From a virus, in IMG/VR virus record IMGVR_UViG_3300036852_000741, positions 41,352 through 105,351 of that record: 64,000 nucleotides of DNA; one strand, written 5' to 3'. Below, one piece after another: positions 2,372-42,900 of the stretch (its first letter is position 1; every line of letters starts with the position of its first letter). A model generated the notes under the pieces. That model was not told the origin of the DNA and ran no database searches. It saw only the letters and a program-made list of their open reading frames with translations. Both the position numbers and the translations under genes were made by a program.

Positions 2372-2561
2372 ACCACCAGGGGTGGGGACCGACGCGGTGG
2401 CGTCCTGGTATTCGGTCCCCACCCGGCCCTTTCTCGCATGTTTGGTGCGCGGGCATGACTGGACTCAGCAGGCGCAGATAGACGCACCGTCGGGCCGGCG
2501 TTTCACGGTGTACCTGTGCGCCCAGTGCGGGGTGCGCATCCAGTACGACGAGTCGTTCTGA
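2325..2561 (+). CDS. Small protein with CxxC zinc-ribbon-like end
   Basis: The well-formed part is the C-terminal 40 residues, with GHDW followed by CAQCGVRIQYDE, a pattern typical of tiny phage zinc-ribbon proteins. The start is uncertain. ATG 2325 gives 78 residues but makes the gene read through a strong hairpin at 2380-2424. GTG 2445, downstream of the hairpin, would give only 38 residues. Its TGA overlaps the ATG of the MuF gene by one base (TGATG), so the two are probably translationally coupled. Confidence 0.5.
   Translation: MAFPRELGVALAALPRPPGVGTDAVASWYSVPTRPFLACLVRGHDWTQQAQIDAPSGRRFTVYLCAQCGVRIQYDESF
2380..2424 (+). terminator. Perfect 13-bp hairpin, terminator-like
   Basis: GGGTGGGGACCGA at 2380-2392 is exactly complementary to TCGGTCCCCACCC at 2412-2424, with a 19-nt loop. 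The sequence after it is GGCCCTTTCTCG, a weak T-run. It could end the portal transcript or form a structured leader ahead of the small zinc-ribbon gene and MuF. Confidence 0.5.
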
Positions 2562-5500
2562 TGGCGGCGCGGCGCCCGCAGCCCGCACCACCGCCGAGCT
2601 TTGACCAGGCAGCCCAGGGGCAGGACGCCGGCTCGCTCAGTGCGCCGGTAGCCGGCCTCGCCGTCGGGGGTGTGGGCGCTGGTGCCGGAGTGGGCGCCGG
2701 CTACGTGGCGGGGGCCGTCACCGCCGCCGCGGGCGCTGCCGCGATCGCCAAGGCCACCAAGGCGATCCTCGCCGCGCTCGTGCGGTTCTTCAGGCGCAAG
2801 AACGCCGACGACCTGGTGTGGCTCGTGGGCGCCCTGCGCCAGGCCCGAGCGGCGGAGGGCGTCACCGACGACGAGCTACGCGCGATCGCCCGCGACGAAA
2901 TCAAGCTGGAGCAGCAGTTTCAGAAGAAGGCGATGGCCCGCTGGGCCGCGGCGCTGCCCAGGCTCCTGGCGATCGCCGACCCGCAGGAGCGTAACTCCGC
3001 GATCGCCAAGTTCCAGGCCCTCGAACGCCACTATCTCAACCTGCGCCAGCAGGCGATGGTCACCCGCGCCGACTCCCGCATCGAGCAGCGCCTGCTCAAG
3101 GAGCTATCCCCCCGCGGCGCCTACTGGAAGCTGTCGCCCTTCGTGATGAAGTCCACCCCCGACTGCATCGCCCTCGCCGGCAAGGTGTGGCCGTGGAGCG
3201 TGATAGATGCCGTGGGCCCACCGCCCCGGCATTTTGGTTGCGCGTGCACCCTCTACGGAGTGGACGAGGCCAAGGCCGCCGGCTGGATCACCGACGCCCA
3301 GGTCCCCACCGACGAGCACGCCGCGCTGCGCCAGGCCCGCGACCTCCTGCGCCGAGCCGAGAAGCTGGAGGAGGCCGTCGGCGAGCACTTCGACCACTGG
3401 GCGGCTTATCACGACGGTAAGACCGAGGACCCCCCCACCCGGGTTGCTGCCCTCGCGCTCGACCACTTTTTGGAGGAGGGCCACAAACCAAAAGCTACGC
3501 AGGCGGAGGAAGCGGCCTACGAGGAGCACCTCCACCCCCGAAACCGACTCGGGCGCTGGGCCGAGGTCCTCAAGTACAACCCCCACCTCCCCGGCGAGGC
3601 GCGCAACAGCCGCTACCGCGACGCCGAAGGCAAGCTCACCGGGCACATCGAGTACGGGCCGAAGTTCCTGGACCTCCCCGCCCGCCAGCAGGAGCACGTG
3701 CTCGCCCACGAGATAGGCCACGACCTGGACGACGACCTGCTGCGCGACCCGCACTCCTGGGTGTGGGACGAGTGGAACTGGGCCGACCGCGCCTTCGAGC
3801 ACCTCATGGGCGGGCCGAACACCACCCCGGGCGAGCGCATCGCAGACGCCTACGCCGCCGCGTTCGTGGGCAGCGTCGAGGACGCCGTGCGCTGGCCGGC
3901 GGTGCTGCGCATCGCCCAAGAGGCCAAGGCGCGCGGGCTCCCGATCCACGAGCGCATCGAGGCACTGCTGCCCGAGGAGCCCAACGACGAGCCCGGCGAG
4001 GTGCTGGCCGACCTGGACTGGCGCGCCGGCTACGAGGGGCGCAGGCGCTGGGAGGCGCTACCCGACGACGCCTGGGTGTGGCTGTTTCACGCCACCCGCC
4101 GTGAGGACGCCGAGGCGTTCGCGCAGCGCGGCATCGACCCGCTGGCCAAGCCGCGTTCGCTGGCGCGCGAGCGCTACGAGGCCGGCGAGCACGCCACCTT
4201 CCAGCCGGGTGCCGGCGTCGGCGGCGGCCTGTACGTCTCCCCCACCGCGCATGGCGCCAGCGGCTACGGCCGCGAGCTACTGGCGGTCAAGGTCCGCAAG
4301 CGCGACGTGATCGTGCCGCCCGAGCAGCACGGGGCGACGGTGGCGATGGCGCTGGGCGTCAGCGACGCGATGGTGGCCAGGGCGATCCCACCCGAGCACG
4401 TGCGACGCATCGAGACCGGTGGACGGGAGCTAGCGCCGGAGGCGGCAGCGGCGCTCCTGCGCGAGCCGAAGGCCGAGCCCGCCCGGCGACTGTACGGGGC
4501 GACCCCCGAGCGCCTGGCCGACTTCGCCGCGGCGCTGCACAGGCTGGACCGGATCACCCGGGCGGACGTGGAGGCGGGGCGAGTGCCGGGCGTGGCGATG
4601 GGCGGGCTGGCCGCGGGCGTCGCGGGACGTGCGGACCTGGCGGAGGGGACGATCACGCTCACCCCGAGCAGCTTCAACGCGGACGGCACGATCGACTCCG
4701 TGCACTTCGCCCACGAGGTCGGGCACTTCCTCGTGCACGCGGTCCTGCGTGACGGCAAGGTGCCACCCGAGCTTGAGGCGATGGCGGCGGGGCATGGTCG
4801 GGCCGAGGGGCGCTACGGCAAGATCGCCGGGGAGGGCGCCAGGCTGTTTGGGCCGGACGCCAAGCTGCCGGAGGAGTTCATCGCGGACTCCTACGCCGAC
4901 CTGATCCACGGCCGAGCGGAGTTCTCCTACGTGCCGGGCCTGGACGGACCCGATGATCCCGAGTCCCGCGAGGCGGCGCTGCGCGAGTTCGACGCCAGGC
5001 CGCAGACGCGGTGGCTGCGCTGGCTGGCGGGCGTGGCCGGGGAGCACGGCCTGCCCGACCGGGGCCTGTGGCGGTTCGTGCGCGACGAGGACGGCATCTA
5101 CCGACTCGTGGCGCGTGAACTCCAGGAGGCCGAGTACGACGACACGCTGCACCCAAGGGGCCGCCTTGAGACGGTCGGGCATGAACTGCCACGGCTGGAG
5201 TGGGTGGACCCGCCGCCGCTCAAGCCCAGAACCGGCGAGCGCAAGGCGGGCGGTTTCACCGCGACCGGCCAGACGACTACCAAGCTCGGCGACCTGATCG
5301 AGGGCCTGCTTGTGGGCCAGCTTGGACTGCGGTCGCTGCTGCCGGAGGGCGGGCGCCAAAGCCCGCTGGACGCGGGGATTGGCGAGTGGGGCTTCGAGGT
5401 CAAGGTGGTCACGACGGCGGCGTCCGAACTGAAGATCAAGCCCAAGAAGCACGAGGTGGCGAGCAAGGTCGCCTACGCGCAGGAGAACGGGCTGACGGCG

Positions 5501-5638
5501 GCGTCGATGATCGTGGTGGTGGACGTGGACGCCAAGAGGGCGTGGGCCTATTGGCGTGAGGGGATCGGCGCCTACCGACTCACGAGGGAGCCCCCGTGGC
5601 ATTTCATGGGGTCGCTGGAGCTACCGGCGGCGGCGTGA
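2561..5638 (+). CDS. MuF-like head protein with two zincin domains, ADP-ribosyltransferase-like and nuclease-like domains
   Basis: The protein has 1025 residues against about 250-450 for a plain MuF protein. The N-terminus is Ala/Gly-rich and hydrophobic to about residue 70. The MuF-type segment, with its D-C...GK...PPPxHxxCxC signature, lies at about 188-230. A linker LHPRNRLGR begins at 324. HEIGH (383-387) marks the first HExxH metallopeptidase-like domain. Residues 505-620 look like an ADP-ribosyltransferase: LFHATRREDAEAF, then GGGLYVSPTAHGASGYG. HEVGH (718-722) marks a second zincin, with the expected downstream E/D-rich helix. A second tag, LHPRGRLE, begins at 863. The last 130 residues carry a restriction-nuclease-like E-x-K pattern (GFEVKVV). 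MuF proteins are carried in the capsid and often bear toxin domains, so ejection with the DNA is inferred. I chose ATG 2561 (TGATG overlap with the previous stop) over the upstream GTG at 2516. Confidence 0.8.
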   Translation: MAARRPQPAPPPSFDQAAQGQDAGSLSAPVAGLAVGGVGAGAGVGAGYVAGAVTAAAGAAAIAKATKAILAALVRFFRRKNADDLVWLVGALRQARAAEGVTDDELRAIARDEIKLEQQFQKKAMARWAAALPRLLAIADPQERNSAIAKFQALERHYLNLRQQAMVTRADSRIEQRLLKELSPRGAYWKLSPFVMKSTPDCIALAGKVWPWSVIDAVGPPPRHFGCACTLYGVDEAKAAGWITDAQVPTDEHAALRQARDLLRRAEKLEEAVGEHFDHWAAYHDGKTEDPPTRVAALALDHFLEEGHKPKATQAEEAAYEEHLHPRNRLGRWAEVLKYNPHLPGEARNSRYRDAEGKLTGHIEYGPKFLDLPARQQEHVLAHEIGHDLDDDLLRDPHSWVWDEWNWADRAFEHLMGGPNTTPGERIADAYAAAFVGSVEDAVRWPAVLRIAQEAKARGLPIHERIEALLPEEPNDEPGEVLADLDWRAGYEGRRRWEALPDDAWVWLFHATRREDAEAFAQRGIDPLAKPRSLARERYEAGEHATFQPGAGVGGGLYVSPTAHGASGYGRELLAVKVRKRDVIVPPEQHGATVAMALGVSDAMVARAIPPEHVRRIETGGRELAPEAAAALLREPKAEPARRLYGATPERLADFAAALHRLDRITRADVEAGRVPGVAMGGLAAGVAGRADLAEGTITLTPSSFNADGTIDSVHFAHEVGHFLVHAVLRDGKVPPELEAMAAGHGRAEGRYGKIAGEGARLFGPDAKLPEEFIADSYADLIHGRAEFSYVPGLDGPDDPESREAALREFDARPQTRWLRWLAGVAGEHGLPDRGLWRFVRDEDGIYRLVARELQEAEYDDTLHPRGRLETVGHELPRLEWVDPPPLKPRTGERKAGGFTATGQTTTKLGDLIEGLLVGQLGLRSLLPEGGRQSPLDAGIGEWGFEVKVVTTAASELKIKPKKHEVASKVAYAQENGLTAASMIVVVDVDAKRAWAYWREGIGAYRLTREPPWHFMGSLELPAAA

Positions 5639-19022: not shown

Positions 19023-21953
19023 GTGACCCAGCCTGGCGCAGAGGAGCTTGTCGTGGGACGGGTCGATCCGTTCGTCGCTTTGCGGGGGCGGATCGAGGAG
19101 GCCAGCAACGGGGGCAAGGATGCTGGCGAGCGGGCGCTGGCGCTCAAGCGGGTGCGCTACGGCCTGCTGGCGGCACTGAGGGACGTGGAGGGCCGCATCG
19201 AGGAGGCCGAGGGCGACCGCGAGCGCGAGGTGCGTCGCGAGGTGCTGCGCCGGGTGCGTGAGAACGCCGACCTGCGCGAGCAACTGGAGCGCCGGGGGCT
19301 GGTGGCGCCGGAGCGCTTGGACGCGATGGGGCTGGTCTCCCATGACGCGCTCGATGAGGCCGGGGTCGAGGGGCGCCTGGAGGAGTTCGCGGCCGGCGCC
19401 CTGGCGAAGCTCGACAACATCGGGCAGGGCTCTGGCGTGTTGGGCAAGTGGCTGGAGAAACTGCACCCGCGCGATCGCGGGGGCCAGTTTGCGAAGAAGC
19501 CCGGCTCGGGGGTGATGACGGCTCACGTGGGCCCGGACGCCGGTGGCAGGGGGACGGTGAAGCGTACGGTCAAGGCACCGGCCGCCAAGCGGCCCGAGCG
19601 GGTGTTCAAGACGCAGAAGGTCATGCCCGAGGAGCTTGTGGCTCAGCAGAAGACGCCCGAGCAGAAGGACGTGCCGGAGGCCGAGCGTGTCGGGTTCGAG
19701 GGCCTGGCCCCGGGTGCTCGCCCGGCCGGGATGAGCGAGCGGCAGTGGCGCCAGGAGCGTGCTCGTACCCCGGAGGGGGCTCGTCGGACCAAGGGGCCGG
19801 TGCAGGCGCCCGAGGAGATTGAGAAGGCCAAGGCCAAGGACCGCGAGAAGCGCCAGCGGGGAATGGCCAAGCGTGTCGAGCGCGAGGTGGCCAAGGGCGT
19901 CAAGGGCGGGGCCGCCCAGCACTTCAATCCGGCCGGCAAGGTCAGCCAGAAGGCGCTGTTGGACTACGTGCGCAACACGCTGACCACGCCGTCAACGGCC
20001 GATGCGCACTCCGAGGTGCGCGGCGAGCAGCGCTTCTATCACCCCGACCGCAAGCAGCTTCACGACACGATTATCGACACGTTGCTGCGGCGCCCCAACG
20101 AGGACGGCACCATCTCGGCGTCCAACGAGTACCTGCCCTCCCAGGAGACGCCGGAGGTCCTGTTCATGGGCGGCGGCTATGCGGCGGGCAAGTCGAGCGC
20201 GGAGAAGTTGCTGCGGGCCCGCAACGAGGTGCCGGCGGACTCGCTGAAGATCGACCCCGACCAGATCAAGTCGATGCTGCCCGAGTTCGTGGCGACGGCC
20301 GGCCACGACCCGGAGGCCAACCTGCGCGTCTACGAGGAGGCGTGGGACATCGCCCAGGAGCTTCAGCGTCAGGCCAAGGAGCGCAAGCTCAACGTGGTGG
20401 TGGACGGCATCACCAACACCTCGGCCGACGAGGTGTTCGGTCGGGTGCAGAGCTTCAAGGACGCCGGCTACGGCAACGCGCGGATCGCCTACGTGGATGT
20501 GCCCACCGACGTGGCGCTCACCCGGGCCGCCGACCGGATGGCCAAGGCGATCGAGCGTGGCGACGGGCCGAACATGCGCCACATCCCCGAGCCGATCATG
20601 CGCGCTGTGCACCGCGACGTGGCGGCGACGATTCCGGCAGTGATGGGCGACCCCCGCCGCGAGGGCCTGGGGGTGCATGTGGACGTGTACGACGGCCAGT
20701 CGGGGGCGCTGCCGATCGCCTCGATCGCCCCCGACGCCGCCGAGCCGACGATCCACAACGACCCGGCGTGGGCGCGGCTGCGCGAGAAGGCCGACGAGAA
20801 GATCGCCGGGGTGGACGCGGCCAAGAGCGCCACCGACCCGTGGGCTGCCGGGCGCCTGGCGGAGAACCACGAGGACTTCTTCAACGTGACGCCGCAGACG
20901 ACGCGGGTGTCGCTGGACAAGCTGCGCCCGTCCAAGCAGCCCGAGAGCCAGCCCAAGTCGGTGGACAACGCCGAGCGGTTCATGCGTCAGGCGGCGGCCG
21001 GCGAGAAGGGCAAGCGCGACCCGATCAGGGTGCGCGACGATGGCGATGGGACCTACACCGTGCTCGACGGCAACGCCACCTACGGGGCGGCGGTGCGCAA
21101 CGACTGGAAGGACCTCCCCGTCGAGGTGGTCAACGCCAAGCCCGGCGGCGAGACCACGGGCGGAGCGGCGGTGCGGCCCGGCGATGACGAGGCCCGAGCC
21201 GTGCACCAGCGGATCGTGGAGTCTGTCGGCGATGTGCCCGCGGAGGCGCCTCCTCAGCCGGCCAGCACCGAGGAGGAGTTGTATGCGCTGGCGCCTGCCG
21301 CCCAGGAGGGCTTCGTTGACATCCTGGACCGCGGTGTGGGCGTCTCAGCGTCGTTGGGGGCGCGTACTCACCAGATCACGAACGAGGACGACTTCAAGGA
21401 GGCGGTGGCCGCGGTCGAGGCCGACCCCGACAGCCCGCACATCCTCCTGGCGCCGTTGAAGGGCACCGAGCGTGCGCGCGAGAAGGTCGAGGGCAAGTAC
21501 AAGGGCGACTGGGGCAAGCTCTCCGATGTTGTGCGCGGGACGGTCGTGGTGCCGGACATCGAGACGCTTGAACAGGCGATGGACGCGGTACGCCGGGAGG
21601 CGGAGGCCAACGGCTGGAAGGTCAGCGCCCTGGAGAACCGGATGGTCAACATCCAGGGCGAGGGCAAGCGTGCGCCGGGGCCGACCTCCTCGGGCTACAC
21701 GGACTTCAACATCCGCCTGGAGGCGCCCAACGGCATCCAGGCTGAGCTTCAGTTCAACACCTCGCACATGGTGATCGCCAAGGAGGGCACGCCAGGCGGC
21801 CACAAGCTGTTTGAGGAGGAGCGCACGATTGTGGATCGGGCGAACGCGAGGGGACTCCCGCTCACCGCCGCGGAGCGCGCCAGGGTGTTCGAGCTTCGCA
21901 AGCAGCAGACGGCGATCTACACCCAGGCATGGGAGGCCGGCATCCCATCGTAG
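19023..21953 (+). CDS. Multidomain cargo protein: zeta-toxin-like kinase, ParB-like and RelA/SpoT-like domains
   Basis: The protein has 976 residues. Residues 1-130 are charged and helical, and LHPRDRGGQF begins at 147. After a basic linker, residues 375-560 form a zeta-toxin/AAA kinase: Walker A GGGYAAGKSS at 383-392, substrate-loop DPDQIKSM, then VVVDGITN near 457. Zeta kinases phosphorylate UDP-activated sugars or nucleotides. Residues 628-703 resemble a ParB-like domain (KLRPS...PIRVRDDGDGTYTVLDGN). Residues 806-952 match a RelA/SpoT synthetase fold (KLSDVVRGTVVVPD, GYTDFNIRLEAPNG, ELQFNT); such domains make alarmone-type nucleotides or act as toxins. GTG 19023 follows a -10 box by 9 nt. 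The tag and the promoter type suggest a virion protein ejected with DNA, which is inference. Confidence 0.75.
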   Translation: MTQPGAEELVVGRVDPFVALRGRIEEASNGGKDAGERALALKRVRYGLLAALRDVEGRIEEAEGDREREVRREVLRRVRENADLREQLERRGLVAPERLDAMGLVSHDALDEAGVEGRLEEFAAGALAKLDNIGQGSGVLGKWLEKLHPRDRGGQFAKKPGSGVMTAHVGPDAGGRGTVKRTVKAPAAKRPERVFKTQKVMPEELVAQQKTPEQKDVPEAERVGFEGLAPGARPAGMSERQWRQERARTPEGARRTKGPVQAPEEIEKAKAKDREKRQRGMAKRVEREVAKGVKGGAAQHFNPAGKVSQKALLDYVRNTLTTPSTADAHSEVRGEQRFYHPDRKQLHDTIIDTLLRRPNEDGTISASNEYLPSQETPEVLFMGGGYAAGKSSAEKLLRARNEVPADSLKIDPDQIKSMLPEFVATAGHDPEANLRVYEEAWDIAQELQRQAKERKLNVVVDGITNTSADEVFGRVQSFKDAGYGNARIAYVDVPTDVALTRAADRMAKAIERGDGPNMRHIPEPIMRAVHRDVAATIPAVMGDPRREGLGVHVDVYDGQSGALPIASIAPDAAEPTIHNDPAWARLREKADEKIAGVDAAKSATDPWAAGRLAENHEDFFNVTPQTTRVSLDKLRPSKQPESQPKSVDNAERFMRQAAAGEKGKRDPIRVRDDGDGTYTVLDGNATYGAAVRNDWKDLPVEVVNAKPGGETTGGAAVRPGDDEARAVHQRIVESVGDVPAEAPPQPASTEEELYALAPAAQEGFVDILDRGVGVSASLGARTHQITNEDDFKEAVAAVEADPDSPHILLAPLKGTERAREKVEGKYKGDWGKLSDVVRGTVVVPDIETLEQAMDAVRREAEANGWKVSALENRMVNIQGEGKRAPGPTSSGYTDFNIRLEAPNGIQAELQFNTSHMVIAKEGTPGGHKLFEEERTIVDRANARGLPLTAAERARVFELRKQQTAIYTQAWEAGIPS

Positions 21954-21994: not shown

Positions 21995-22306
21995 GTGGCA
22001 TCCAATGAGACCACGCCAGAGGTCCCCACCGGGGCCACGATGTACTACAGGGACAACGAGGGCAGCCTATTCCGGGAACGAGACGGGTGGGGCGGCGAGA
22101 TACTCAACGGCGACGAGTGGCAGTTCTACGCGATCGACATGACCAGGGTCGTGACGATTGACGAGGCCGAGGCCGAGGAGATGGCCGCCGGCACACCGCT
22201 GGACGCCGAGAACCAGGGGATCAGCGTAGCGGCCGGCATCAGTGCTGACCAGTACGCCGAGGAGACGCCTGGCGAGAAGCCGGAGGAGGAGCAGAGTGCC
22301 GTCTGA
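21995..22306 (+). CDS. Acidic hypothetical protein
   Basis: One hundred and three residues, strongly acidic, with a central Tyr/Trp-rich segment (MYYRDNEGSLFRERDGWGG) and a Glu-rich tail. It is first in the third operator-driven operon. Such acidic proteins can be DNA mimics, but nothing specific supports that here. Confidence 0.5.
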   Translation: MASNETTPEVPTGATMYYRDNEGSLFRERDGWGGEILNGDEWQFYAIDMTRVVTIDEAEAEEMAAGTPLDAENQGISVAAGISADQYAEETPGEKPEEEQSAV

Positions 22307-22604
22307 GCGCAAGGACGAGGGCAAGGAGACGAAGGGCAGGGAGCCCGCGATCGCGCCCGGGATGTCGCACGAGGACATCGCGACGGCCGGCGGGATGATC
22401 GACCTGCCCTACGAGGCGCCTCCGGGCGACGCGCAGCCGCTCCAGTACGCCGACGACCTGCCCGACGAGAAGGGCTGGACACCCCCCGAGGGGTTCAAGA
22501 TCGCGGGGGTGGACTTCGCAGACGCAGTGGCCGGGATCGGGGGTGGCGCGCAGATACCACCGCCGGCCCCGGTCGAGGAGGAGGAGAACGGCTCGACCGA
22601 GTAG
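22296..22604 (+). CDS. Acidic, Pro-rich hypothetical protein
   Basis: A 102-residue protein with low-complexity acidic regions. GTG 22296 follows GGAGGAG and is preferred over ATG 22242. It overlaps the previous gene by 11 nt. Confidence 0.5.
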   Translation: MPSERKDEGKETKGREPAIAPGMSHEDIATAGGMIDLPYEAPPGDAQPLQYADDLPDEKGWTPPEGFKIAGVDFADAVAGIGGGAQIPPPAPVEEEENGSTE

Positions 22605-22613
22605 GAGCGGGGC

Positions 22614-22865
22614 ATGGCGGCAGAGAGCCGGGCGACGCCCGCCGAGCAGATGCGGGTGCGTCTGGAGATAGCCAAGCGGGCAGGCATCCCCTTCCCTGTG
22701 GCCTGGGAGCGAGGGTGGCGGCGGGTTAGGTGGCCGCACGACACCGCCCATCGCCGTGATTGGAAACGGGCGCTTGGGGCAACCCGAGTCTCATGGGAGC
22801 GCGCCTATGACGGCGACCTCTGCCCCGTGGAAGGACAGATGACTGCTATGGAACTGGTTGCCTGA
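22614..22865 (+). CDS. Small basic Trp-rich protein
   Basis: An 83-residue protein with an Arg/Trp-rich core (VAWERGWRRVRWPHDTAHR). GAGCGGGG upstream may serve as ribosome site. Function is unknown. Confidence 0.45.
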   Translation: MAAESRATPAEQMRVRLEIAKRAGIPFPVAWERGWRRVRWPHDTAHRRDWKRALGATRVSWERAYDGDLCPVEGQMTAMELVA

Positions 22866-26796: not shown

Positions 26797-29547
26797 GTGA
26801 GCACGGCGGTCGGGACGGAGGTCCTGGAGGAGGCTCCGGCCTCGGCCGGGGCGGCACTGGCGGCGCGTGGCGGCCGACCCGCGGTCCGCTCCCGTACCGG
26901 GAAGTCGAATCCGACCGCCGGCATGAGCCCCCAGCAGGCGGCCGAGTTCGAGCGCCTGCATCCCCGGGCTGCCAAGGGGCGCACGGGCGGCGGCCAGTTC
27001 GCCGTGAAGCAGGGCGCCGGCATGGAGGGGGCGCCCGACGACCAGGTTCGCGAGGTGCAGCGGCGCATCAACACGGCCGGCACCGGGCGCGTGGTGGTGG
27101 ACGGCCGGTTCGGGCCGGTCACCGCCGAGGCGGTACGTCACTTTCAGCGCCAGGCGGGCCTGAACGCCAACGGCATCGTGGACCGCAACACCTATGAGGC
27201 GCTGACCAACCCGCCGCCCTTGTCGCGCCAGGAGGTCGTGGCTCAGGAGCGCGCGGACGCGGCCGGCGGCAGCCGACGCCTGGGCCGGGCCGATGCGCAG
27301 TCGCGGCGCGAGCGCGGCGGGAGCGGGGGTGGGAGTGGAGGCGGGACCACAGGACGGTCGCGCAGCGGCTCGGAGACGCGGTTGGACCCCACCGATGTCC
27401 ACGCGATCGAGGACTTCCAGCGCGAGCACGGCCTGAAGGTGGACGGGGTGATCGGCCCCGACACCCAGCGTGCGCTACGCCGCGAACGTGAGCGCGGGGA
27501 CGGCGAACGCCGCGGCGAGGGTCGCTCGACGCGAGGTACTGGGACGCTGCGGCGCGGCGACGGCGGCAAGCGGGCCGGCAAGCAGGTCAAGGCGATCCAG
27601 CAGATGCTCCAGGACCTCGGCTACGACCTGGGCGACGAGGGCACCGACGGCGAGTTCGGTTCGGCCACCGAAGCGGCGCTCAAGAAGATGCAGGACGACT
27701 ACGGCCTGGACCCCGACGGGGTGGTGGGGCCGCGCACCCGCAAGCTGCTCAACCGGTTGCGCTCGCGGCTGAAGGCGGAGACCCGGCAGATGGCGTCGGG
27801 CAAGGCGCCCCGTGACGACTACAAGCTCGTGGAGGGACAGATGATCGAGGAAGCCACCCTGACCGCCGCTGCGCGCAAGGCGCTGCCCAAGTCGGCCTTC
27901 GTGTTCCCGGAGCGCGCGCCCGAGTCGGGCTCGTACCCGATTCACGACGAGGGGCACGCCAAGGCGGCGCTGGCCCGCGTCAAGCAGCACGGCTCCCCCG
28001 ACGAGCAGGCCAAGGTCAGGGCGGCGGTCAAGCGCCGCTACCCGAACCTGCTCCAGGAGGGAGAGGCGCTCCACGAGGACGCCTGGGGCGGCAAGCCCGG
28101 CACGAACTGGAAGCAGGTCGGACCCGAGGCCAAGAAGAAGCTCAGCCCCCTCATCAAGCACTACATGGGCAAGCCGCACCCGTTCACCGCCTGCGTGCGC
28201 GATAACTCCAAGCGCTTTGGTGAGGAGCGCGCCAAGAAGGTGTGCGCCGTTCTCAAGGACCTTGGAGCCCGGACCACCAAGTGGCGCAAGGGGCCCAAGG
28301 GCAAGGCCGAGGAGGCGTTCCTGGAGGAGGTCCTGATCGACCTCGTGGAGGCCGGGCTGGAGACCGAGGCCGACGTGGACCTGATCGCCGGCTTCCTCCA
28401 GGGGCAGTTGATTCAGCCGGTGCTCTACGACGCCCACCTGCGTCTGGAGGAGGCGGTCGAGGTGCGCAAGGCGGCCAAGGGTGGCGACGAGTTCGCGCGC
28501 GCTCGGGCTCGCGAGCGGGTGCTGCGCGAGGCGGTGGGCGCGCTGCACGGGCTGAGTTGGGAGGCGCGGCTACATCCGCGCGATCGCGAGGGCCGCTTCC
28601 GCGATGTGATCGGGTCGCTCGCCCCGGGTTCCTCCATCGACCTGCCGGGCAACGTGACGGTGGGGCGGCTGGCGGACACGAAGCCGGCTGCGGACACGTT
28701 CTCGTCGCGGATGGCTGGCTTGCCGCGCATGGACCCGATGGCGGCGCGGGCTCCGGCGGGCAGCCACGGGGGCTATTGGGTGTCGCATCCGCCGACGAAG
28801 AACCCGACGCGGGCGCACTGGAACCACGAGCAGAGCTTCCACGACACGCCGCAGTCGGCGGCGAAGGCCACGATGAAGGCGCTGTCGGACGAGGGCATCA
28901 CGTTCGACGCTGACGTGCACCCCGGCCAGGGGACGCTGGACGTGGACAGGCCGGCCCGCGACGCCAAGCATGAGGACCTCAAGCGGCGACTCAAGGACGC
29001 CGAGTCGCGCGGCGACACGGCATCAATCCAGGCGCTGCGGCGGGCACTTGCGAAGCAGGGGTCGATCGCTGGTGTTCGCGCGGAGCGCAAGCCGACGCCC
29101 GCGAGCGCGCACCTGGAGCAGAAGGTCAACTACGGCGGCGTGCCGACCGCGCGCGGCGACGTGCTCAAGGACCTGGAGCGTAAGGGCGTGTCGCCCGCGG
29201 CGCGCGATCGCTACATGCAGGGGCTGGAGACGGGCGCCAAGGCGCGTGCGGAGGCGCCGGCCGCGGCGAAGCCCGAGGTCGATACCGCTGCGATCAAGGC
29301 GGCACCGCTGAGCGACCTGGCGGCGATGATCCAGCGCGACTGGTCGAGCCAGGGCAAGGGCGTGAACTTCGCGGCCAAGCCCTACCTGGAGGCGATGCGC
29401 TCGCTGACCACCGTGCGCGATCGGTACGGCATGGACCCCGGGGAGTCGATCGTGGCCTACTTCCTCAGCAACGCGACCTCGTGGAAGGGCCCGACCGCCA
29501 AGGCGGTCAAGACGGAGCTTCGGCGCCGGCTGAAGGGCGGACGCTGA
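26797..29547 (+). CDS. Large cargo protein with three peptidoglycan-binding repeats
   Basis: The protein has 916 residues. LHPRAAKGRTGGGQF starts at 54. Three PG_binding_1-type domains follow at about 77-130, 195-230 and 262-325, each with an FQR/MQxxxGLxxDGxVGPxT-like core. Residues 365-410 have the LPKSAFVFPE...YPIHDEGHAKAALARV pattern that I recall from phage head-associated proteins. A second tag, LHPRDREGRF, begins at 592. The C-terminal 300 residues are unassigned. Peptidoglycan-binding domains anchor proteins to the cell wall, but no hydrolase is visible. The gene appears leaderless. With the tag, this suggests a virion protein acting at the envelope during entry, which is inference. 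Confidence 0.65.
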   Translation: MSTAVGTEVLEEAPASAGAALAARGGRPAVRSRTGKSNPTAGMSPQQAAEFERLHPRAAKGRTGGGQFAVKQGAGMEGAPDDQVREVQRRINTAGTGRVVVDGRFGPVTAEAVRHFQRQAGLNANGIVDRNTYEALTNPPPLSRQEVVAQERADAAGGSRRLGRADAQSRRERGGSGGGSGGGTTGRSRSGSETRLDPTDVHAIEDFQREHGLKVDGVIGPDTQRALRRERERGDGERRGEGRSTRGTGTLRRGDGGKRAGKQVKAIQQMLQDLGYDLGDEGTDGEFGSATEAALKKMQDDYGLDPDGVVGPRTRKLLNRLRSRLKAETRQMASGKAPRDDYKLVEGQMIEEATLTAAARKALPKSAFVFPERAPESGSYPIHDEGHAKAALARVKQHGSPDEQAKVRAAVKRRYPNLLQEGEALHEDAWGGKPGTNWKQVGPEAKKKLSPLIKHYMGKPHPFTACVRDNSKRFGEERAKKVCAVLKDLGARTTKWRKGPKGKAEEAFLEEVLIDLVEAGLETEADVDLIAGFLQGQLIQPVLYDAHLRLEEAVEVRKAAKGGDEFARARARERVLREAVGALHGLSWEARLHPRDREGRFRDVIGSLAPGSSIDLPGNVTVGRLADTKPAADTFSSRMAGLPRMDPMAARAPAGSHGGYWVSHPPTKNPTRAHWNHEQSFHDTPQSAAKATMKALSDEGITFDADVHPGQGTLDVDRPARDAKHEDLKRRLKDAESRGDTASIQALRRALAKQGSIAGVRAERKPTPASAHLEQKVNYGGVPTARGDVLKDLERKGVSPAARDRYMQGLETGAKARAEAPAAAKPEVDTAAIKAAPLSDLAAMIQRDWSSQGKGVNFAAKPYLEAMRSLTTVRDRYGMDPGESIVAYFLSNATSWKGPTAKAVKTELRRRLKGGR

Positions 29548-30101
29548 TGGCCGAGCTACCACCCGGGGTCATCCGTGAGGCGCGGCGCCTCCAGGAGGCG
29601 GTCCGCGAGCGCCGTGAGGCGCACGCTCGCCATGACGCCGAGGCGTACGCCCGCGCGACCGCGCGCGAGGAGGCCCTGGCCGGCTGGTTGTTGGAGGCGT
29701 TGGAGGAGGCGGCGGTCGCTCATCGGGCCGGCGACTTCGAGGGGCTCCATCCGCGCGACCGGCTCGGCCGGTTCATGGAGAAGCTGGATTCCGAGCTTCA
29801 TGCGGCGCTCTTGCGCGCCAGCCGTGTGCGCACCGGGCGGCGCCTGGCACGCGATGACCGGCGCTTGGAGCGCCGGGCGCTGCGCGCCCAAAGGCATGGC
29901 CGGGAGTTGGCGTCGTTGGGTGGGCTGCTTCCTCACAGCCAGGTGCCGGGTCCGGGCGCCCTGGGGAGCCGCGCGCTGCGTGCCAGCGCTGAGCAGCCGG
30001 TGCCGTTGACGCGGGGGGCGAAGGTCAAGGCGCTGGTGGCGTCGGGTCTGGCAGCCAGCGCCGACGAAGCTCGCGAGCTTCTGCTGGACCTGGGCGAGTA
30101 G
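29547..30101 (+). CDS. Small tag-bearing helical protein
   Basis: The 184-residue protein is almost all helical and Arg/Ala/Glu-rich, with LHPRDRLGRFMEKL beginning at residue 67. ATG 29547 overlaps the stop of the peptidoglycan-binding protein (TGATG), so it is coupled to it. It has no enzymatic motif; it could be a carrier or scaffold that uses the same tag, or a stripped-down cargo protein. Confidence 0.55.
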   Translation: MAELPPGVIREARRLQEAVRERREAHARHDAEAYARATAREEALAGWLLEALEEAAVAHRAGDFEGLHPRDRLGRFMEKLDSELHAALLRASRVRTGRRLARDDRRLERRALRAQRHGRELASLGGLLPHSQVPGPGALGSRALRASAEQPVPLTRGAKVKALVASGLAASADEARELLLDLGE

Positions 30102-36911: not shown

Positions 36912-39900
36912 GTGGCCACCTTCGTAGATCGCTCGAACGGCGGCCAGGTCGGGCGCGATGGGTTCCGGCTGGGCTACGAGCTTCTGGGCATCGACCGGCT
37001 GGGCCCGTACGACACGTTCACGGGCAACGTCTCGGGCGGGCTCAAGCACCTGCTGGTCGGCAAGTCGGGTGGCGCCTACCCGGGCTACTGGGCCCTGAGC
37101 GGCGGGCTGTTCGGGACGTTCGGGTCGCCGCTCGTCGGCGGGGTCGTCGCTGGCGGCGACAAGCACTCGGCGATCACGAAGCCCGGCGGAGCGAGTGCCA
37201 GCGGACAGGCCGGCGGGACGCGCACGGTGCTGCGCTCCGCCTCCGGCGGCGGGACCGGGCCAGCGTCGGGCGGTGGCACCAAGGCGCCGCTGGCGACTAA
37301 GGCCGGAGGTGGCAAGGCCAGTCCGAACCTGCTGCGCAACGGTGATTTCGAGGTGGACGTGGCGGGGTGGGCGGTCTACCTATCGGGCACGATCACGTTT
37401 GTCCGGGCGACGGACTGGGCCGACACGGGCGCTGCCTCCATGCGGGTGACCGCCGCGGCGGCTGGCAACTTCATCACGAGCGATCGGGGCACGGCCGGGA
37501 TGCCGGTGATCGCCGGGACGAGCTACACGCTGGCAGCCACTCGCAACGTGCTCGACCCGACGACGGTCATCTACGTCCAGTGGTTCAACTCGGCGGGCAC
37601 GTACCTCACCCAGAACTCGGTGCTCTCCTCGACGCTGACGGGGGCCTTTCGTCAGCAGGCGCAGGTCACTGCCCCGGCGAATGCGGCGTTTTGTGCGCTC
37701 GTTCCCGGCGGTGAGGCCAGCGCGTTCGATTTCTACCTAGACACGATTCGCTTTGGGCTGGCGGGCGCGGCGCCTGGTGGCGTCAGGACCATCTTGGTCA
37801 CCAAGGGCGGCGGAGCGACGGCGGCGGGCGCTTCGGGTGCCGTCAAGCATCCCGCCATCTCGAAGGCGAGCGGGGCGGCGGGCGGCTGCATCGGTGGAGG
37901 CGCACGCTCGACGCTGGGCTCCAAGAGCGGCGGTGGGGTGATCCCGCTGGGCGGGGCGCTCATCAACCTGCTCACCAACCCGAGCCTGGAGACCAACACC
38001 ACCGCCTGGGCCATCAACCCGGGTGGGGTGGGCGGTAGCGCCACCCTGACCCGGATCACGACCGACTCGGTGGTTGGTGCGGCTGCGGCCCAGCAGGCGG
38101 GCACGTCTGGCAGCAGCTACGGCATCTACTTCTACGAGGCCGCCGGCACAGAGCCCTTTGTGTCCCCCGGCCAGTCGATTGCGGTGCGGGCCTCCGTGAA
38201 GATGGTGGGCGCGGCGTTCACGAACCTGCTTCGTGTCGGGGTGCGCTTCTACAACACGGCGGGCGCCTACCTCTCGGAGAACACGGTCGGTTCCGTTAGC
38301 AACCCGGTGGCCGATACGTGGTACGCGCTGAGCGGCAGCATGGTCGTGCCGGCGGGGGCGTACCGGGCGTCGATCCAGGTCAACACGAACTCGCTGGGGC
38401 TGGGCACCTCGTTCACCCTGGTCTACGACGCGCTGCTGATGGTCATGGGCGCCACGGTACCCGCCTACTTCGACGGGGACTCGGCGCTGGCGGGCTGGAC
38501 GGGCACGGCGCACGCGTCCACCTCGAAGCTCACGGTGATTCCGGGAATCGGCCGGTCGATCCTGGTCACCAAGCCCGGTGGTGCGGCGGCGGGCGGGAGC
38601 GGCGGTGGCACTCGAACGGAGCCGGTCTCCAGGGCGGGCGGGGGAAGCGCCCGGGGGGCGGCCGGTGGCGACAAGGACATTCTGGTTACGAAGGCCGGGG
38701 GCGCGACTGCGGTCGGCACTCCTGGTGGAATCAAGCACCCGGCCGTTGCCAAGAGCGGCGGCGCGCAGGGCGCGGCGAGTGGCGGTGGCGTCAAGCATCC
38801 GGCGGTGACCAAGCCGGCGGGCGCCGCGGGCGGTGGGACCGCGGCGGGTACGCGCACCGTCCTGGTGACCAAGCCGGGCGGCGCCTCGGGTCGCGGTATC
38901 GCCAGCGGCGACAAGGATGTCCTGACCGCCAAGGCGGGCGGTGCGAGCGCGACGGGCACCCCCGGTGGCGTCAAGCATCCGGTCGTCCTCAAGGCCGAGG
39001 GGGCGCCCGCCGCCGGTGTGGGGGGCGGCATCAAGCACGTTCTGTTGCCCTATGCGTCCGGGGGCGCGATCGCGACCGGCAGCGCTGGCGGCACGAAGAA
39101 GCCGCTGGTCACCAAGCCGGCCGGCGCGGCGGGCGCGGCAAGCGGTGGGGGGGCCAAGACGGCGCTGGCCACCCGGTCGGGCGGCGGGGTCTCGCAAGCC
39201 GGGCCGGGCCCAACGGACCTGCTGCGCAACGGGTCGCTTGAGCAGGGCAACACCGGCTGGACGATCAACGGGGTCGCCACGGTCACCCGCATCTCGGGCG
39301 CTGCCTACGACGGGGCGTGGCTGCTTTCTGTGGCCGCCCCCGGCTATGTGGATGGCGGGGCGTTCATCCCGTTTCACCAGGTTGCGCCGGGCGATGTGCT
39401 GAGCCTGTCGGTGTTTGTGCGCGGCGAGGTGGGCGGCGAACGGGTCCACATCCGTGCGCGCGAGGGGCTGCTCAATGGTGGATTCCTGCGCGAGAACACG
39501 GGCTCGCACTTCACGCTGACGACTGGCTGGACGCGGGTGAGCATGGTCACCCCGGCGATGGGTGCGAGCACTGCTCTGCTGACCCTCAAGATCGTCAACT
39601 CGGACACCTTCGCGGCCACGTTCTATGTCGATGCGGGCCAGGAGACCCAGGGGGCTGACCTCAAGGCATACGTCAGTGATCCGGGCGCTGGCACTAAGAC
39701 CGTCCTGGTCGGCAAGTCGGGCGGCGCCGTGGCCAGCGGTGTCGGGGGCGGCGTCAGGCACGTGCTGTTGCCCTACGAGGCCGGGGGGGCGCAGGGCACC
39801 GCGAGCGGTGGCGCCGTCAAGCACCCCGCGGTCTCCAAGGCCAACGGCGCGAGCGCGGCGGCCTCTGCGAACGGAACGCGCAAGAGCTTGGCTACCAAGC

Positions 39901-42900
39901 CGGGCGGCGGCCAGGGCGTGGGCGTTGGTGGCGGCACTCGCACGGTGCTGCTCACCAAGCGGGCGTCGCCGTTGACGTTCATCAGTGCGGAGGCCGATCC
40001 GCAGCCGCGGGGAAGCGGCGTCGGCGCTGGGGCTGTCGCCGCGTACTGGAGTGCTGTTGAGGATTCGGCCTCGCCGTCGGGCTGGGCCCTGGTCGCCGCG
40101 GACGTACCGGCGGCGGTGAACAACGACCCCTACCACCAGCCCTCCGATAGCCCCGGCGCGCTCGTCATGTACTTCGGCGTGCAGGCCGGGGATACCGTGA
40201 CGCTCAGCGTCTGGATGCGCATGAACGCTGCGGCGATGGCGCAGGCGGCCAACGTCGGCAACGGCCGCGGGGTGGCCCAGGTCTGGTGGCACACCTCCAG
40301 CGGCTATTTCGTCAACAGCCTGCCGCGGCCTGCGACGGCGGACACATGGGAGCGTGTGCGCGCCACCTATGCGGTGCCGGCCAACGCCGACGCCTTCTTC
40401 CTGCGCTTCTACGGGTCCAGCGACCGGGCTGGCGGCGAGGTCCGCTGGGCGGGCATCCAGCTTGCGCGCAGCGCAACGGTGATGGCCCCCAACGAGGGGG
40501 CCGGCGGCGGCACTCGCACCATCTTGGCGACGAAGGCTGGCGGCGCGCTGGGGACGGCCAACCCGGGCGGCGTCAAGCACGTTCTGTTGCCCTACAAGGC
40601 CAATGGGGCGCAGGGAGCCACTGTCGGGGGGGGCGTCAAGCATCCGGCGATCACCAGGTTGGCGGGTGCCAACGCCGGTGCAGTCGGCGGCGGCACGCGC
40701 ACCGACTTGGCGACCAAGCCGGGCGGCGGGCAAGCCGCTGGTGTCGGTGGCGGCACGCGGTCGGTGCTGGTCTCGAAGGCCGGCGGCGTCAGCGGCGTGG
40801 CGGGCCACGGTGGCGTCAAGCACCCAGCGGTGAGCAAGGGCGCGGGCGCCAGCGGCTCCAGCGCGGGCGGCGCGGTCAAGCACCCGGCGGTCGGTAAGTC
40901 CTCCGGCGCGATCATGGTGTCGAGTGCCGTCGGTACGCGCACCACCCTGGTCTCCAAGCCGGCCGGGGGGGCTGCGGCGGCCACTGCCGGCGGGTCCAAG
41001 ACGGCCCTGGTGACCAAGCCCGGCGGCGCGGCGGCTGCCGGCTCGGTGCTGGGTACACGCACCGTTCTTGTCACCAAGGCGGCGGGCGCCACGGCGGCGG
41101 GCGGGCATGGTGGCGTCAAGCACGTCGCGCTCGGCAAGGCCAGCGGGGCGTCGGGTGTCACGAGCGCAGCGGGTACTCGCACGATCCTGGTCACCAAGTC
41201 GGCGGGCGCCAGCGCGCTGGCCTCTGCGGGCGGGGCTCGCACCGAGCCGGTCGGCCGGGCGGGCGGCGGCCAGGGCGTGGCGGTTACGGGGGGTACGCGC
41301 ACCGCGCTGGTGACCAAAGCTGGCGGCGTTGTGGGCACCGCGGCTCCTGGCGCTGTCAAGCACCCGGCGGTCCGCAAGGACGCGGCGGTGGCGCTCGCGG
41401 CGACGGCGGCCGGCGGTATCAAGCACCCGGCTGTCGGCAAGGCTGGCGGCGCGCAGGCGATGGCGGTGGCCGGCGCCGTCAAGCACCCGGCGATCACGAA
41501 GTCCGCCGGGGCGGTGGCATCGGCGTCTGCGGCCGGCCCCCGCACCCTCCTGGTCGGCAAGCCCGGCGGCGGCCAGGCGTCGGGGGCCGGAGCGGGCACC
41601 CGGACTCTGCTGGTCTCTCGGTCCGGCGGCGGCCTTGGGGTGGCCAGTGCTGCTGGCACTCGCACGGCGCTGGTCACCAAGCCCGGCGGCGGTACTCAGG
41701 CCGGGGCTGGCGGCGGAGCACGGACTGACCTGGCCAGCAAGCCGGGCGGTGCCATCGCCGTTGGCACCTCCGGCGGCGTCAAACGCCCCGCGGTCTTCAA
41801 GGCCAACGGCGCGACGGCCGCAGCGAGCGGCAGCGGGGTGCGCAGCGTTCTGCTGCCCATCCGCACGGGAGGAGGCGCTGCGGGCGCCAGCGCTACTGGT
41901 ACACGCACGAGCCTGGTCGCCAAGTCGGCGGGCGCGCTGACGACTGGGCTGGCCGGCGCAACGCGTACGGCCCTGATCGCTCGCTCGGGTGGTGGCCAGG
42001 CGGTCGAGCAGGCCGGTGCGATCAGAACGCTTTTGCTCGCGAAAGCCGGAGGCGCCGTTGCCTTCGGAGCGCCGGGCGCCGTCAAACATCCGGCGGTCGC
42101 GAAGTCCAATGGTGCGACGACGAGTGCGAGCGCCGGTGGCATCAAGCATCCGGCTGTCACCAGGGCCGCCGGTGCCGTGGCGGGCGCGTCGAGCTTTGGT
42201 GCGCGCACCGTCCTGGTCACCAAGTCGGCCGGGGGCACCGGGGGCGCAAGCGGCGGAGGCACACGTACCCAGCCGGTCTCCAGGGCTGGCGGTGGCATCG
42301 CAACCGGTAGCGCAGGCGGTGTTCGCAGCGCGCTGGTGACCAAGCCCTCGGGGGCAGTTGGTGTCGCGGCGCCTGGGGGAATCAAGCACCCCGCCGTCGC
42401 CAAGGCCGGCGGTGCGGCGGGTGTGGCTCTCGCTGGGGGGGTCGGGCACCCGGCCGTTGCGAAATCGGCTGGCGGGACAGGGGTCGCGTCGGGGGCGGGC
42501 ACTCGCACCGCTCTGGTCACCAAGTCGGCGGGCGCCGCCGCTGGCCTGGCTGGTGGCGGCACACGCACCGAGCCGGTTTCTAAGCCGGGCGGCGGGTTTG
42601 CGCTTGCTGTCCCTGGTGGCGTCCGCACCGTGCTTGTCACGAAGGTCGGCGGGGCAAGCGCTGCCGCTGGGCCGGGGGCCGACAAGCACCCGGTGGCAAT
42701 CAAGGCCAACGGGGCGCTGGCGTCGCTTGTTGGTGGCGGGGGGAAGCACCCAGCGGCTTCCAGGTCCGGTGGCGCGGCCACTACGACGACTGCCGGGGGT
42801 GACAAGCATCTAGCGGCCACCAAGCCGGCCGGGGCGCTGGCATCGGGAGCGGGCGGCGGCACGCGCACGGTCTTGATCGCGGAGGCAGGAGGGGGCGCTT

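What the first reader, a model, noticed from the sequence alone, without database searches (positions are those of the whole stretch)
19023..21953. One protein combining zeta-kinase, ParB-like and RelA/SpoT-like domains
Walker A GGGYAAGKSS with VVVDGITN, a VLDGN-containing ParB-like region and a GYTDFN...ELQFNT RelA/SpoT-like region lie in one 976-residue phage protein together with the cargo tag. Zeta and RelA/SpoT domains are known as toxins in toxin-antitoxin and polymorphic toxin systems. Having three nucleotide-acting domains in a probable ejected protein suggests a multi-warhead takeover effector. No antitoxin-like gene is obvious beside it, which would fit a protein that is only active after ejection.
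Basis: partly seen in the sequence, partly recalled or inferred. Interest (0 to 1): 0.85.

Follow-up and report, generated by a model that had tools for sequence, protein, structure and literature searches.

The report
Phage effector: zeta kinase plus alarmone synthetase
A large environmental phage carries one protein that joins a cell-wall-toxin-like kinase and an alarmone-making toxin enzyme behind a sequence tag shared with its head proteins, which suggests a poison packed in the virus particle, probably with its own small antidote gene next door.

Summary
Residues ~339-593 are a zeta/PezT/AvrRxo1-type kinase (Pfam 9e-23; Foldseek to zeta 4e-9). Residues ~611-716 have a ParB/sulfiredoxin fold (weak by sequence, clear by model). 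Residues ~742-974 are a RelA-type synthetase closest to Tas1/Apk1, a toxic (p)ppApp synthetase (profile 6e-17; Foldseek 4e-8). Catalytic residues of the kinase and synthetase are conserved in relatives.

Three corrections. (1) The ParB-like domain is probably not a third warhead. Among nine orthologues only this one has it, its GN[HR]R motif is degraded, and each close homologue found sits fused in front of a Rel domain, so it looks like part of the Rel cassette. (2) A candidate immunity gene exists: window 21995-22306 is homologous to a small protein found beside Rel genes in every confirmed locus, in unrelated phages; several add an alarmone hydrolase (apk2-iapK-aph1 order). (3) Each ingredient is known from MuF polymorphic toxins and 'polyvalent proteins'.

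New are the zeta+toxSAS fusion (five phages), portal-tag-Rel fusions, and the candidate immunity family. Virion packaging is inferred, not shown. New variant of a known kind.

The parts
19023..21953 (+). 976-aa multidomain protein (N-terminal helical region, tag, linker, zeta kinase, ParB-like domain, Rel-type synthetase)
   Evidence: ORF and coding score; eight orthologues
19068..19463 (+). N-terminal helical region, residues 16-147, partly or wholly conserved in the 9 orthologues; candidate virion-association region
   Evidence: alignment A3; AF2 model, helix 34-91, pLDDT 85-92; no Pfam match
19461..19490 (+). tag LHPRDRGGQF (residues 147-156), at the border of the ordered N-terminus and a disordered linker
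20037..20801 (+). zeta-toxin-type kinase domain, residues 339-593; Walker A K390, D411/D413, D461, R505, R519
   Evidence: Pfam PF06414 9.1e-23; PDB zeta 3.3e-13 and PezT; Foldseek zeta 4e-9, AvrRxo1 1e-8
20853..21170 (+). ParB/sulfiredoxin-fold domain, residues 611-716, with degraded motif DGNAT
   Evidence: ParB_N E 0.011; Foldseek ParB/Noc/KorB ~5e-4, sulfiredoxin TM 0.67 by target length; homologues fused to Rel in L021, L022, L120, L121
21246..21944 (+). RelA/toxSAS-type synthetase domain, residues 742-974; closest solved structure Tas1/Apk1
21995..22306 (+). candidate immunity gene (103 aa, pI 4.05) directly downstream; homologue of the small protein next to Rel genes in other phages
   Evidence: hhalign probability 91.8%; hmmsearch E 0.0056 among 2604 ORFs; Rel adjacency in all confirmed loci
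22242..22604 (+). next gene, family conserved downstream in Rel-bearing and Rel-lacking relatives; not Rel-specific
22614..22865 (+). small gene downstream of Rel in 7 phages but also present in phages without a Rel match; rejected as a specific immunity gene
2516..5638 (+). 1040-aa MuF-like head protein directly after the portal, with the tag at residue 340; supports a head link of the tag
   Evidence: phrog_241 E 0.005; Phage_Mu_F E 0.09 over most of the model; tag
26797..29547 (+). 916-aa peptidoglycan-binding protein with the same tag at residue 593
   Evidence: PG_binding_1 3.4e-44; tag
29547..30101 (+). 184-aa protein with the same tag (LHPRDRLGRF)

Best explanation
A phage polyvalent/polymorphic-toxin-type effector. 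SHOWN BY COMPUTATION: an N-terminal helical region plus an HPRxRxGx[FW] tag, a zeta-type kinase with its essential residues, and a C-terminal cassette (ParB-like + toxSAS) that varies between relatives. INFERRED: the N-terminus and tag place the protein in the phage head next to the MuF-like protein and portal; it enters the host with the DNA; the toxSAS part uses ATP to pyrophosphorylate ATP/ADP (or GTP/GDP), draining nucleotides and flooding the cell with alarmone; the zeta part phosphorylates a nucleotide-linked substrate (UDP-GlcNAc as in zeta, or NAD as in AvrRxo1), stalling wall synthesis or metabolism. The small acidic protein encoded directly downstream probably binds and silences the Rel domain while virions are being made. 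The ParB-like domain is most likely an accessory of the Rel cassette, not a separate nuclease warhead.
For: Zeta: Pfam 9.1e-23, PDB zeta/PezT, Foldseek; K46, D67, E116 and R158 of zeta, essential in PMC6356619, map to K390, D413, D461 and R505. Rel: profile to Tas1 5.7e-17 and other RSH synthetases; model pLDDT 87.5, top Foldseek hit Tas1 3.8e-8; K813, R817, K821, D835, R838, G891, D894, G904, E908 and H927 invariant in 25/25; the Apk1 residues R330/E382/N370 (PMC12691689) map to R838/E908/N896. Delivery: same tag in the MuF-like protein beside the portal and in the PG-binding protein; Rel fused to portal with the tag between in L023 and L127/L131; Rel gene directly after the portal gene in PHB04. 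Polymorphism: same N-terminus and zeta, with Rel (5 phages) or without it (4). Immunity: small gene beside Rel in 9/9 loci of a scan keyed on the small gene, in either orientation; HD_4 hydrolase next in 8 of 17 records, the toxin - small immunity - hydrolase order of apk2 (PMC12226406).
Against: No proteomics: packaging and ejection are not shown. The gene is ~17 kb from the portal/MuF-like pair, among many small genes. The immunity match for this phage is borderline (E 0.0056), and in the four closest Rel-bearing relatives the gene after Rel is not detectably homologous. No hydrolase gene in this record (record may be incomplete). Most relatives have GKG rather than GK[ST] in the Walker A motif of zeta. 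Syn3 here is DFN, not the GxN described for Apk2.
Confidence: 0.62

Rival explanations
1. Takeover enzyme that works inside the infected cell after its own synthesis (or early after entry) to reprogramme nucleotide pools or counter host alarmone/nucleotide-based defence, rather than to kill.
For: Phages are thought to manipulate alarmones (HD alarmone phosphodiesterases in jumbo phages, PMC7824862); Iyer et al. propose that RelA domains in polyvalent proteins shut down or alter host expression (PMC5512222). No integrase in this record or 8 relatives, so lysogen protection or inter-strain killing is not an obvious need.
Against: The closest solved relative is a toxin (Tas1); a dedicated small partner gene and a hydrolase next to Rel in relatives fit a toxin that must be neutralised.
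Confidence: 0.22
2. Structural head protein (minor head/linker) in which the zeta, ParB and Rel domains are decayed passengers.
For: The PHROG family that holds the zeta region of Cyanophage PSS2 is called minor head protein; the ParB motif is degraded; most relatives have GKG in Walker A.
Against: Catalytic residues of zeta and Rel are invariant across many diverged phages, and Rel is modular (present or absent), which does not fit neutral decay.
Confidence: 0.1
3. Three independent nucleotide-acting warheads with no immunity because activity starts only after ejection.
For: All three folds are present.
Against: ParB-like motif DGN[AG]T lacks the H/R of GNHR; all four ParB homologue loci found are ParB-Rel fusions; a Rel-linked small gene lies directly downstream.
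Confidence: 0.06

Closest known systems
Apk2 MuF toxins of temperate phages (S. pneumoniae, M. haemolytica, P. multocida; PMC12226406)
   Same: Phage head-linked polymorphic protein with a C-terminal RSH-type synthetase; a small immunity gene, and in relatives an alarmone hydrolase, follow the toxin gene
   Different: Here the N-terminus is not a recognisable MuF domain, a zeta kinase and a ParB-like domain are added, syn3 is DFN instead of GxN, no hydrolase is in this record and no integrase was found
Tas1/Apk1 (Pseudomonas T6SS effector, PDB 6ox6)
   Same: Closest solved structure of the Rel domain by sequence and by fold; same ATP-site residues
   Different: T6SS PAAR delivery; product specificity of the phage domain untested
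Polyvalent proteins of phages and conjugative elements (Iyer et al. 2017, PMC5512222)
   Same: Large multidomain proteins in late-gene contexts; zeta-like kinases and RelA/SpoT domains fused to MuF, and ParB-like domains, are all described
   Different: The passages read here do not describe zeta and RelA in one protein, an HPR tag or a Rel-linked small gene; their full architecture files could not be read
Zeta/PezT toxins and AvrRxo1
   Same: Kinase fold and essential residues K46, D67, E116 (as Asp), R158 of zeta
   Different: No epsilon/PezA-type antitoxin seen; substrate unknown; embedded in a larger phage protein
Bxa, MuF-ADP-ribosyltransferase with two immunity proteins (PMC11699363)
   Same: Prophage head-region polymorphic toxin with a binding immunity protein plus an enzymatic one
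   Different: Different toxin domain; temperate Bacteroides prophage

Membership tests
Zeta toxin family (PF06414) | Sequence match over the curated cut-off | tested here: met
   81.2 bits against cut-off 22.3
Zeta toxin family (PF06414) | Essential residues K46, D67, E116, R158, R171 (PMC6356619) | tested here: met
   K390, D413, D461 (Asp for Glu), R505 by alignment; R171 equivalent ambiguous (R519 the invariant candidate)
Zeta toxin family (PF06414) | UDP-GlcNAc kinase activity and toxicity | not testable with these tools
   Needs an assay; AvrRxo1, an NAD kinase, is about as close by fold
RSH synthetase / toxSAS | Synthetase fold | tested here: met
   Model pLDDT 87.5; Foldseek Tas1 3.8e-8, Rel 3.2e-4
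RSH synthetase / toxSAS | Catalytic Asp, donor-site Arg/Lys, Glu/Gln of syn4 | tested here: met
   D835, R838, K813/R817/K821 and E908 invariant in 25/25; Q910 nearly so
Apk ((p)ppApp) subgroup | syn2 RxT and syn3 GxN signatures | tested here: inconclusive
   RGT present; syn3 is DFN: Asn kept, Gly replaced; nucleotide specificity cannot be read from this
MuF polymorphic toxin (Apk2 type) | N-terminal MuF domain | tested here: not met
   No MuF match in residues 1-166; MuF-like sequence is in another gene, 2516-5638
MuF polymorphic toxin (Apk2 type) | Conserved N-terminus with exchangeable C-terminal toxin | tested here: met
   9 orthologues: 5 with Rel, 4 without
MuF polymorphic toxin (Apk2 type) | Adjacent small immunity gene | tested here: inconclusive
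   21995-22306 homologous to the Rel-linked small family, borderline E 0.0056; neutralisation untested
Polyvalent protein (Iyer et al.) | Two or more effector-type domains in one phage protein in a late-gene context | tested here: met
   Zeta, ParB-like and Rel domains; genome region with portal, MuF-like protein, head protease, sheath and tape measure
Polyvalent protein (Iyer et al.) | Packaged in the virion and injected | not testable with these tools
   Only indirect: shared tag, portal-tag-Rel fusions
ParB-type DNase/CTPase | Fold | tested here: met
   Foldseek ParB, Noc, KorB and sulfiredoxin
ParB-type DNase/CTPase | GxRR / GNHR-type catalytic motif | tested here: not met
   DGNAT here, DGNGT in L021, DGNRT in L120; the motif itself is recalled from general knowledge of the family

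The most novel reading that the evidence does not exclude
The HPRxRxGx[FW] tag is a modular head-cargo address used by many tailed phages: wherever it is placed (in front of each module of a protein, or between portal and toxin) the following domain is carried in the virion. This phage uses it to inject a dual ATP-consuming toxin (zeta kinase + toxSAS) together with a MuF-like polyvalent protein and a wall-binding protein, with a so far undescribed immunity-protein family guarding the toxSAS part.
Probability: 0.3. Interest if true: 0.85.

Novelty: new variant of a known kind. Interest (0 to 1): 0.62.

Why it matters
It would be a phage effector that pairs two different ATP-consuming toxins in one delivered protein, and it gives two testable handles: a small immunity family that marks phage-delivered alarmone toxins across unrelated phages, and a short tag that may address proteins to the phage head. 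If the tag proves to be a packaging signal, the injected proteins of many uncultured phages could be listed from sequence alone.

Tried and rejected
Single-protein scan of IMG/VR with the whole protein found nothing, and one scan of GTDB genomes with the alignment found no relative, so no host is assigned. Window 22614-22865 looked like an immunity gene (beside Rel in 7 phages, absent from the orthologous loci without Rel), but it also occurs in records without a Rel match; rejected. The N-terminal domain of the gene after Rel in L029/L031/L032/L035 was tested as a divergent form of the small gene and showed no significant match. An HD_4 alarmone hydrolase was sought in the own record: none. 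In close relatives one record without Rel passed the cut-off; hits in the Rel-bearing ones were below it. No PDB match for the two small families; no NCBIfam or PADLOC match for the protein.

Full report
WHAT IS THERE. The window is bases 41352-105351 of a 105,351-base viral record, about 70% G+C, with portal, MuF-like protein, head maturation protease, tail sheath and tape measure genes, so a contractile-tailed phage. The ORF at 19023-21953 is real: it has a strong codon signal and eight same-frame orthologues in other viral contigs.

ZETA DOMAIN. Pfam Zeta_toxin hits at 9.1e-23. A 13-sequence profile hits PDB zeta (3.3e-13) and PezT. The AF2 model of residues 1-600 (mean pLDDT 76, around 90 over most of the kinase) matches zeta (4e-9), AvrRxo1 (1e-8) and PezT (1.6e-7). 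Residues essential in zeta (K46, D67, E116, R158; PMC6356619) correspond to K390, D413, D461 and R505 by the alignment; R171 is ambiguous. K390, D411, D413, D461, R505 and R519 are invariant in all sequences aligned, Cyanophage PSS2 included. Most close relatives have Gly after the Walker A lysine; this protein has Ser.

REL DOMAIN. The single sequence already finds Tas1 (1.8e-6). The family profile finds Tas1 at 5.7e-17 and then many SAS and RelA structures. The model of residues 600-976 (pLDDT 87.5) has Tas1 as best Foldseek hit (3.8e-8), followed by Rel. In 25 sequences K813, R817, K821, D835, R838, G891, D894, G904, E908 and H927 are invariant. N896 is kept here and in some relatives; the PHB04-like group has Met there. 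The Apk1 residues R330, N370 and E382 listed in PMC12691689 correspond to R838, N896 and E908. So an active alarmone-type synthetase is likely; which nucleotide it uses is not known.

PARB-LIKE DOMAIN. By sequence it is marginal (ParB_N 0.011). By fold it is a ParB/sulfiredoxin domain. Among the nine orthologues only this one has it. A scan keyed on it returned four loci, all ParB-Rel fusions. The GNHR-type motif reads DGNAT here, DGNGT in L021 and DGNRT in L120. I therefore read ParB-Rel as one cassette and do not count ParB as an independent nuclease.

ARCHITECTURE AND POLYMORPHISM. Of the nine orthologues, this phage and L029, L031, L032 and L035 end in Rel; L030, L033, L034 and L036 do not, and no Rel match was found elsewhere in those four records. 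That is the layout of a polymorphic toxin. In two further phages (L073, L091) a zeta gene and a divergent Rel gene are near neighbours.

DELIVERY. The tag [WFY]xxxLHPRxRxGx[FW] is in four proteins of this genome: the MuF-like protein after the portal, this effector, the peptidoglycan-binding protein and a 184-aa protein. Among 2948 ORFs of at least 100 aa in the fetched loci, 25 carry a tag-like motif: 16 of the 111 with a zeta or Rel domain and 9 of the other 2837 (counted from the table; loci are not independent and spurious ORFs are in the background). In L023, L127 and L131 the order is portal - tag-like motif - Rel in one polypeptide. In G018 one protein has three tags, a peptidoglycan-binding-like stretch and a zeta domain. 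In the model the tag lies where the ordered N-terminus ends. All this supports, but does not prove, packaging in the head.

IMMUNITY. In PHB04-like phages the Rel gene is followed at once by a ~70-aa acidic protein and, in many, by an HD_4 hydrolase, the order of apk2-iapK-aph1 (PMC12226406). A scan keyed on the small protein returned nine loci, all with Rel next to it; in L127, L128, L131 and L132 it lies on the opposite strand, converging on the Rel end of the fused portal gene, and L023 has the same layout. The gene directly after our ORF (21995-22306) matches this family (hhalign probability 91.8%; hmmsearch E 0.0056, third after two other Rel-adjacent hits among 2604 ORFs, best shuffled 0.053). 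It was not found in the four orthologous loci without Rel. The match is modest and neutralisation is untested. No HD_4 hydrolase and no phage integrase were found in this record.

STATUS AGAINST THE LITERATURE. Zeta-MuF and RelA-MuF fusions and ParB-like domains in injected phage proteins were described in 2017 (PMC5512222); MuF polymorphic toxins with RelA-like domains in PMC5576092; biochemistry and immunity of the alarmone type in PMC12226406; a second MuF toxin with two immunity proteins in PMC11699363. I found no description of a zeta-toxSAS fusion, of portal-tag-Rel fusions, of this small family, or of the tag in the papers searched; the searches were limited and supplementary files were not readable. 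No isolate phage record in the phage collection holds both domains: PSS2 matched only the zeta region and PHB04 only the Rel region.

VERDICT. Domain calls confirmed, interpretation partly supported, novelty moderate: a new variant of phage polyvalent/polymorphic toxins with a candidate immunity family and a candidate packaging tag that can be tested.

Noticed in passing
window 2516-5638: MuF-like protein after the portal looks polyvalent itself: tag at residue ~340, HEIGH and HEVGH (metallopeptidase-like) motifs, an ADP-ribosyltransferase-like stretch (FHATRREDAEAF...GGGLYVSP) and a C-terminal EVK-type nuclease-like stretch; only MuF has (weak) profile support.
   Followed up: partly
L118 (G018) 238-2964: One 908-aa protein with three HPRGRGGKW tags, a peptidoglycan-binding-like stretch and a zeta domain; tags lie in front of modules.
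   Followed up: partly
L091 5779-6708 and 7631-8539; L073 2807-7395: Separate zeta and Rel genes near each other in unrelated phages; in L091 both proteins carry the same tag variant (YHGxDGRFTT).
   Followed up: partly
L027 5086-7782: Rel domain, a match to the small candidate-immunity domain and an inorganic pyrophosphatase fused in one protein.
   Followed up: partly
L036 8982-12827: Peptidoglycan-binding protein of a relative, 1281 aa, with two tags and a weak LPD1 (large polyvalent protein-associated domain) match.
   Followed up: no
window 21995-22604: Two short genes stand where relatives have one fused ~240-aa gene; the second half is conserved in Rel-bearing and Rel-lacking relatives and resembles the C-terminus of the L036 zeta protein.
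   Followed up: partly
window 36912-46829: 3305-aa ORF of unknown function, strongest coding score in the record; not studied.
   Followed up: no
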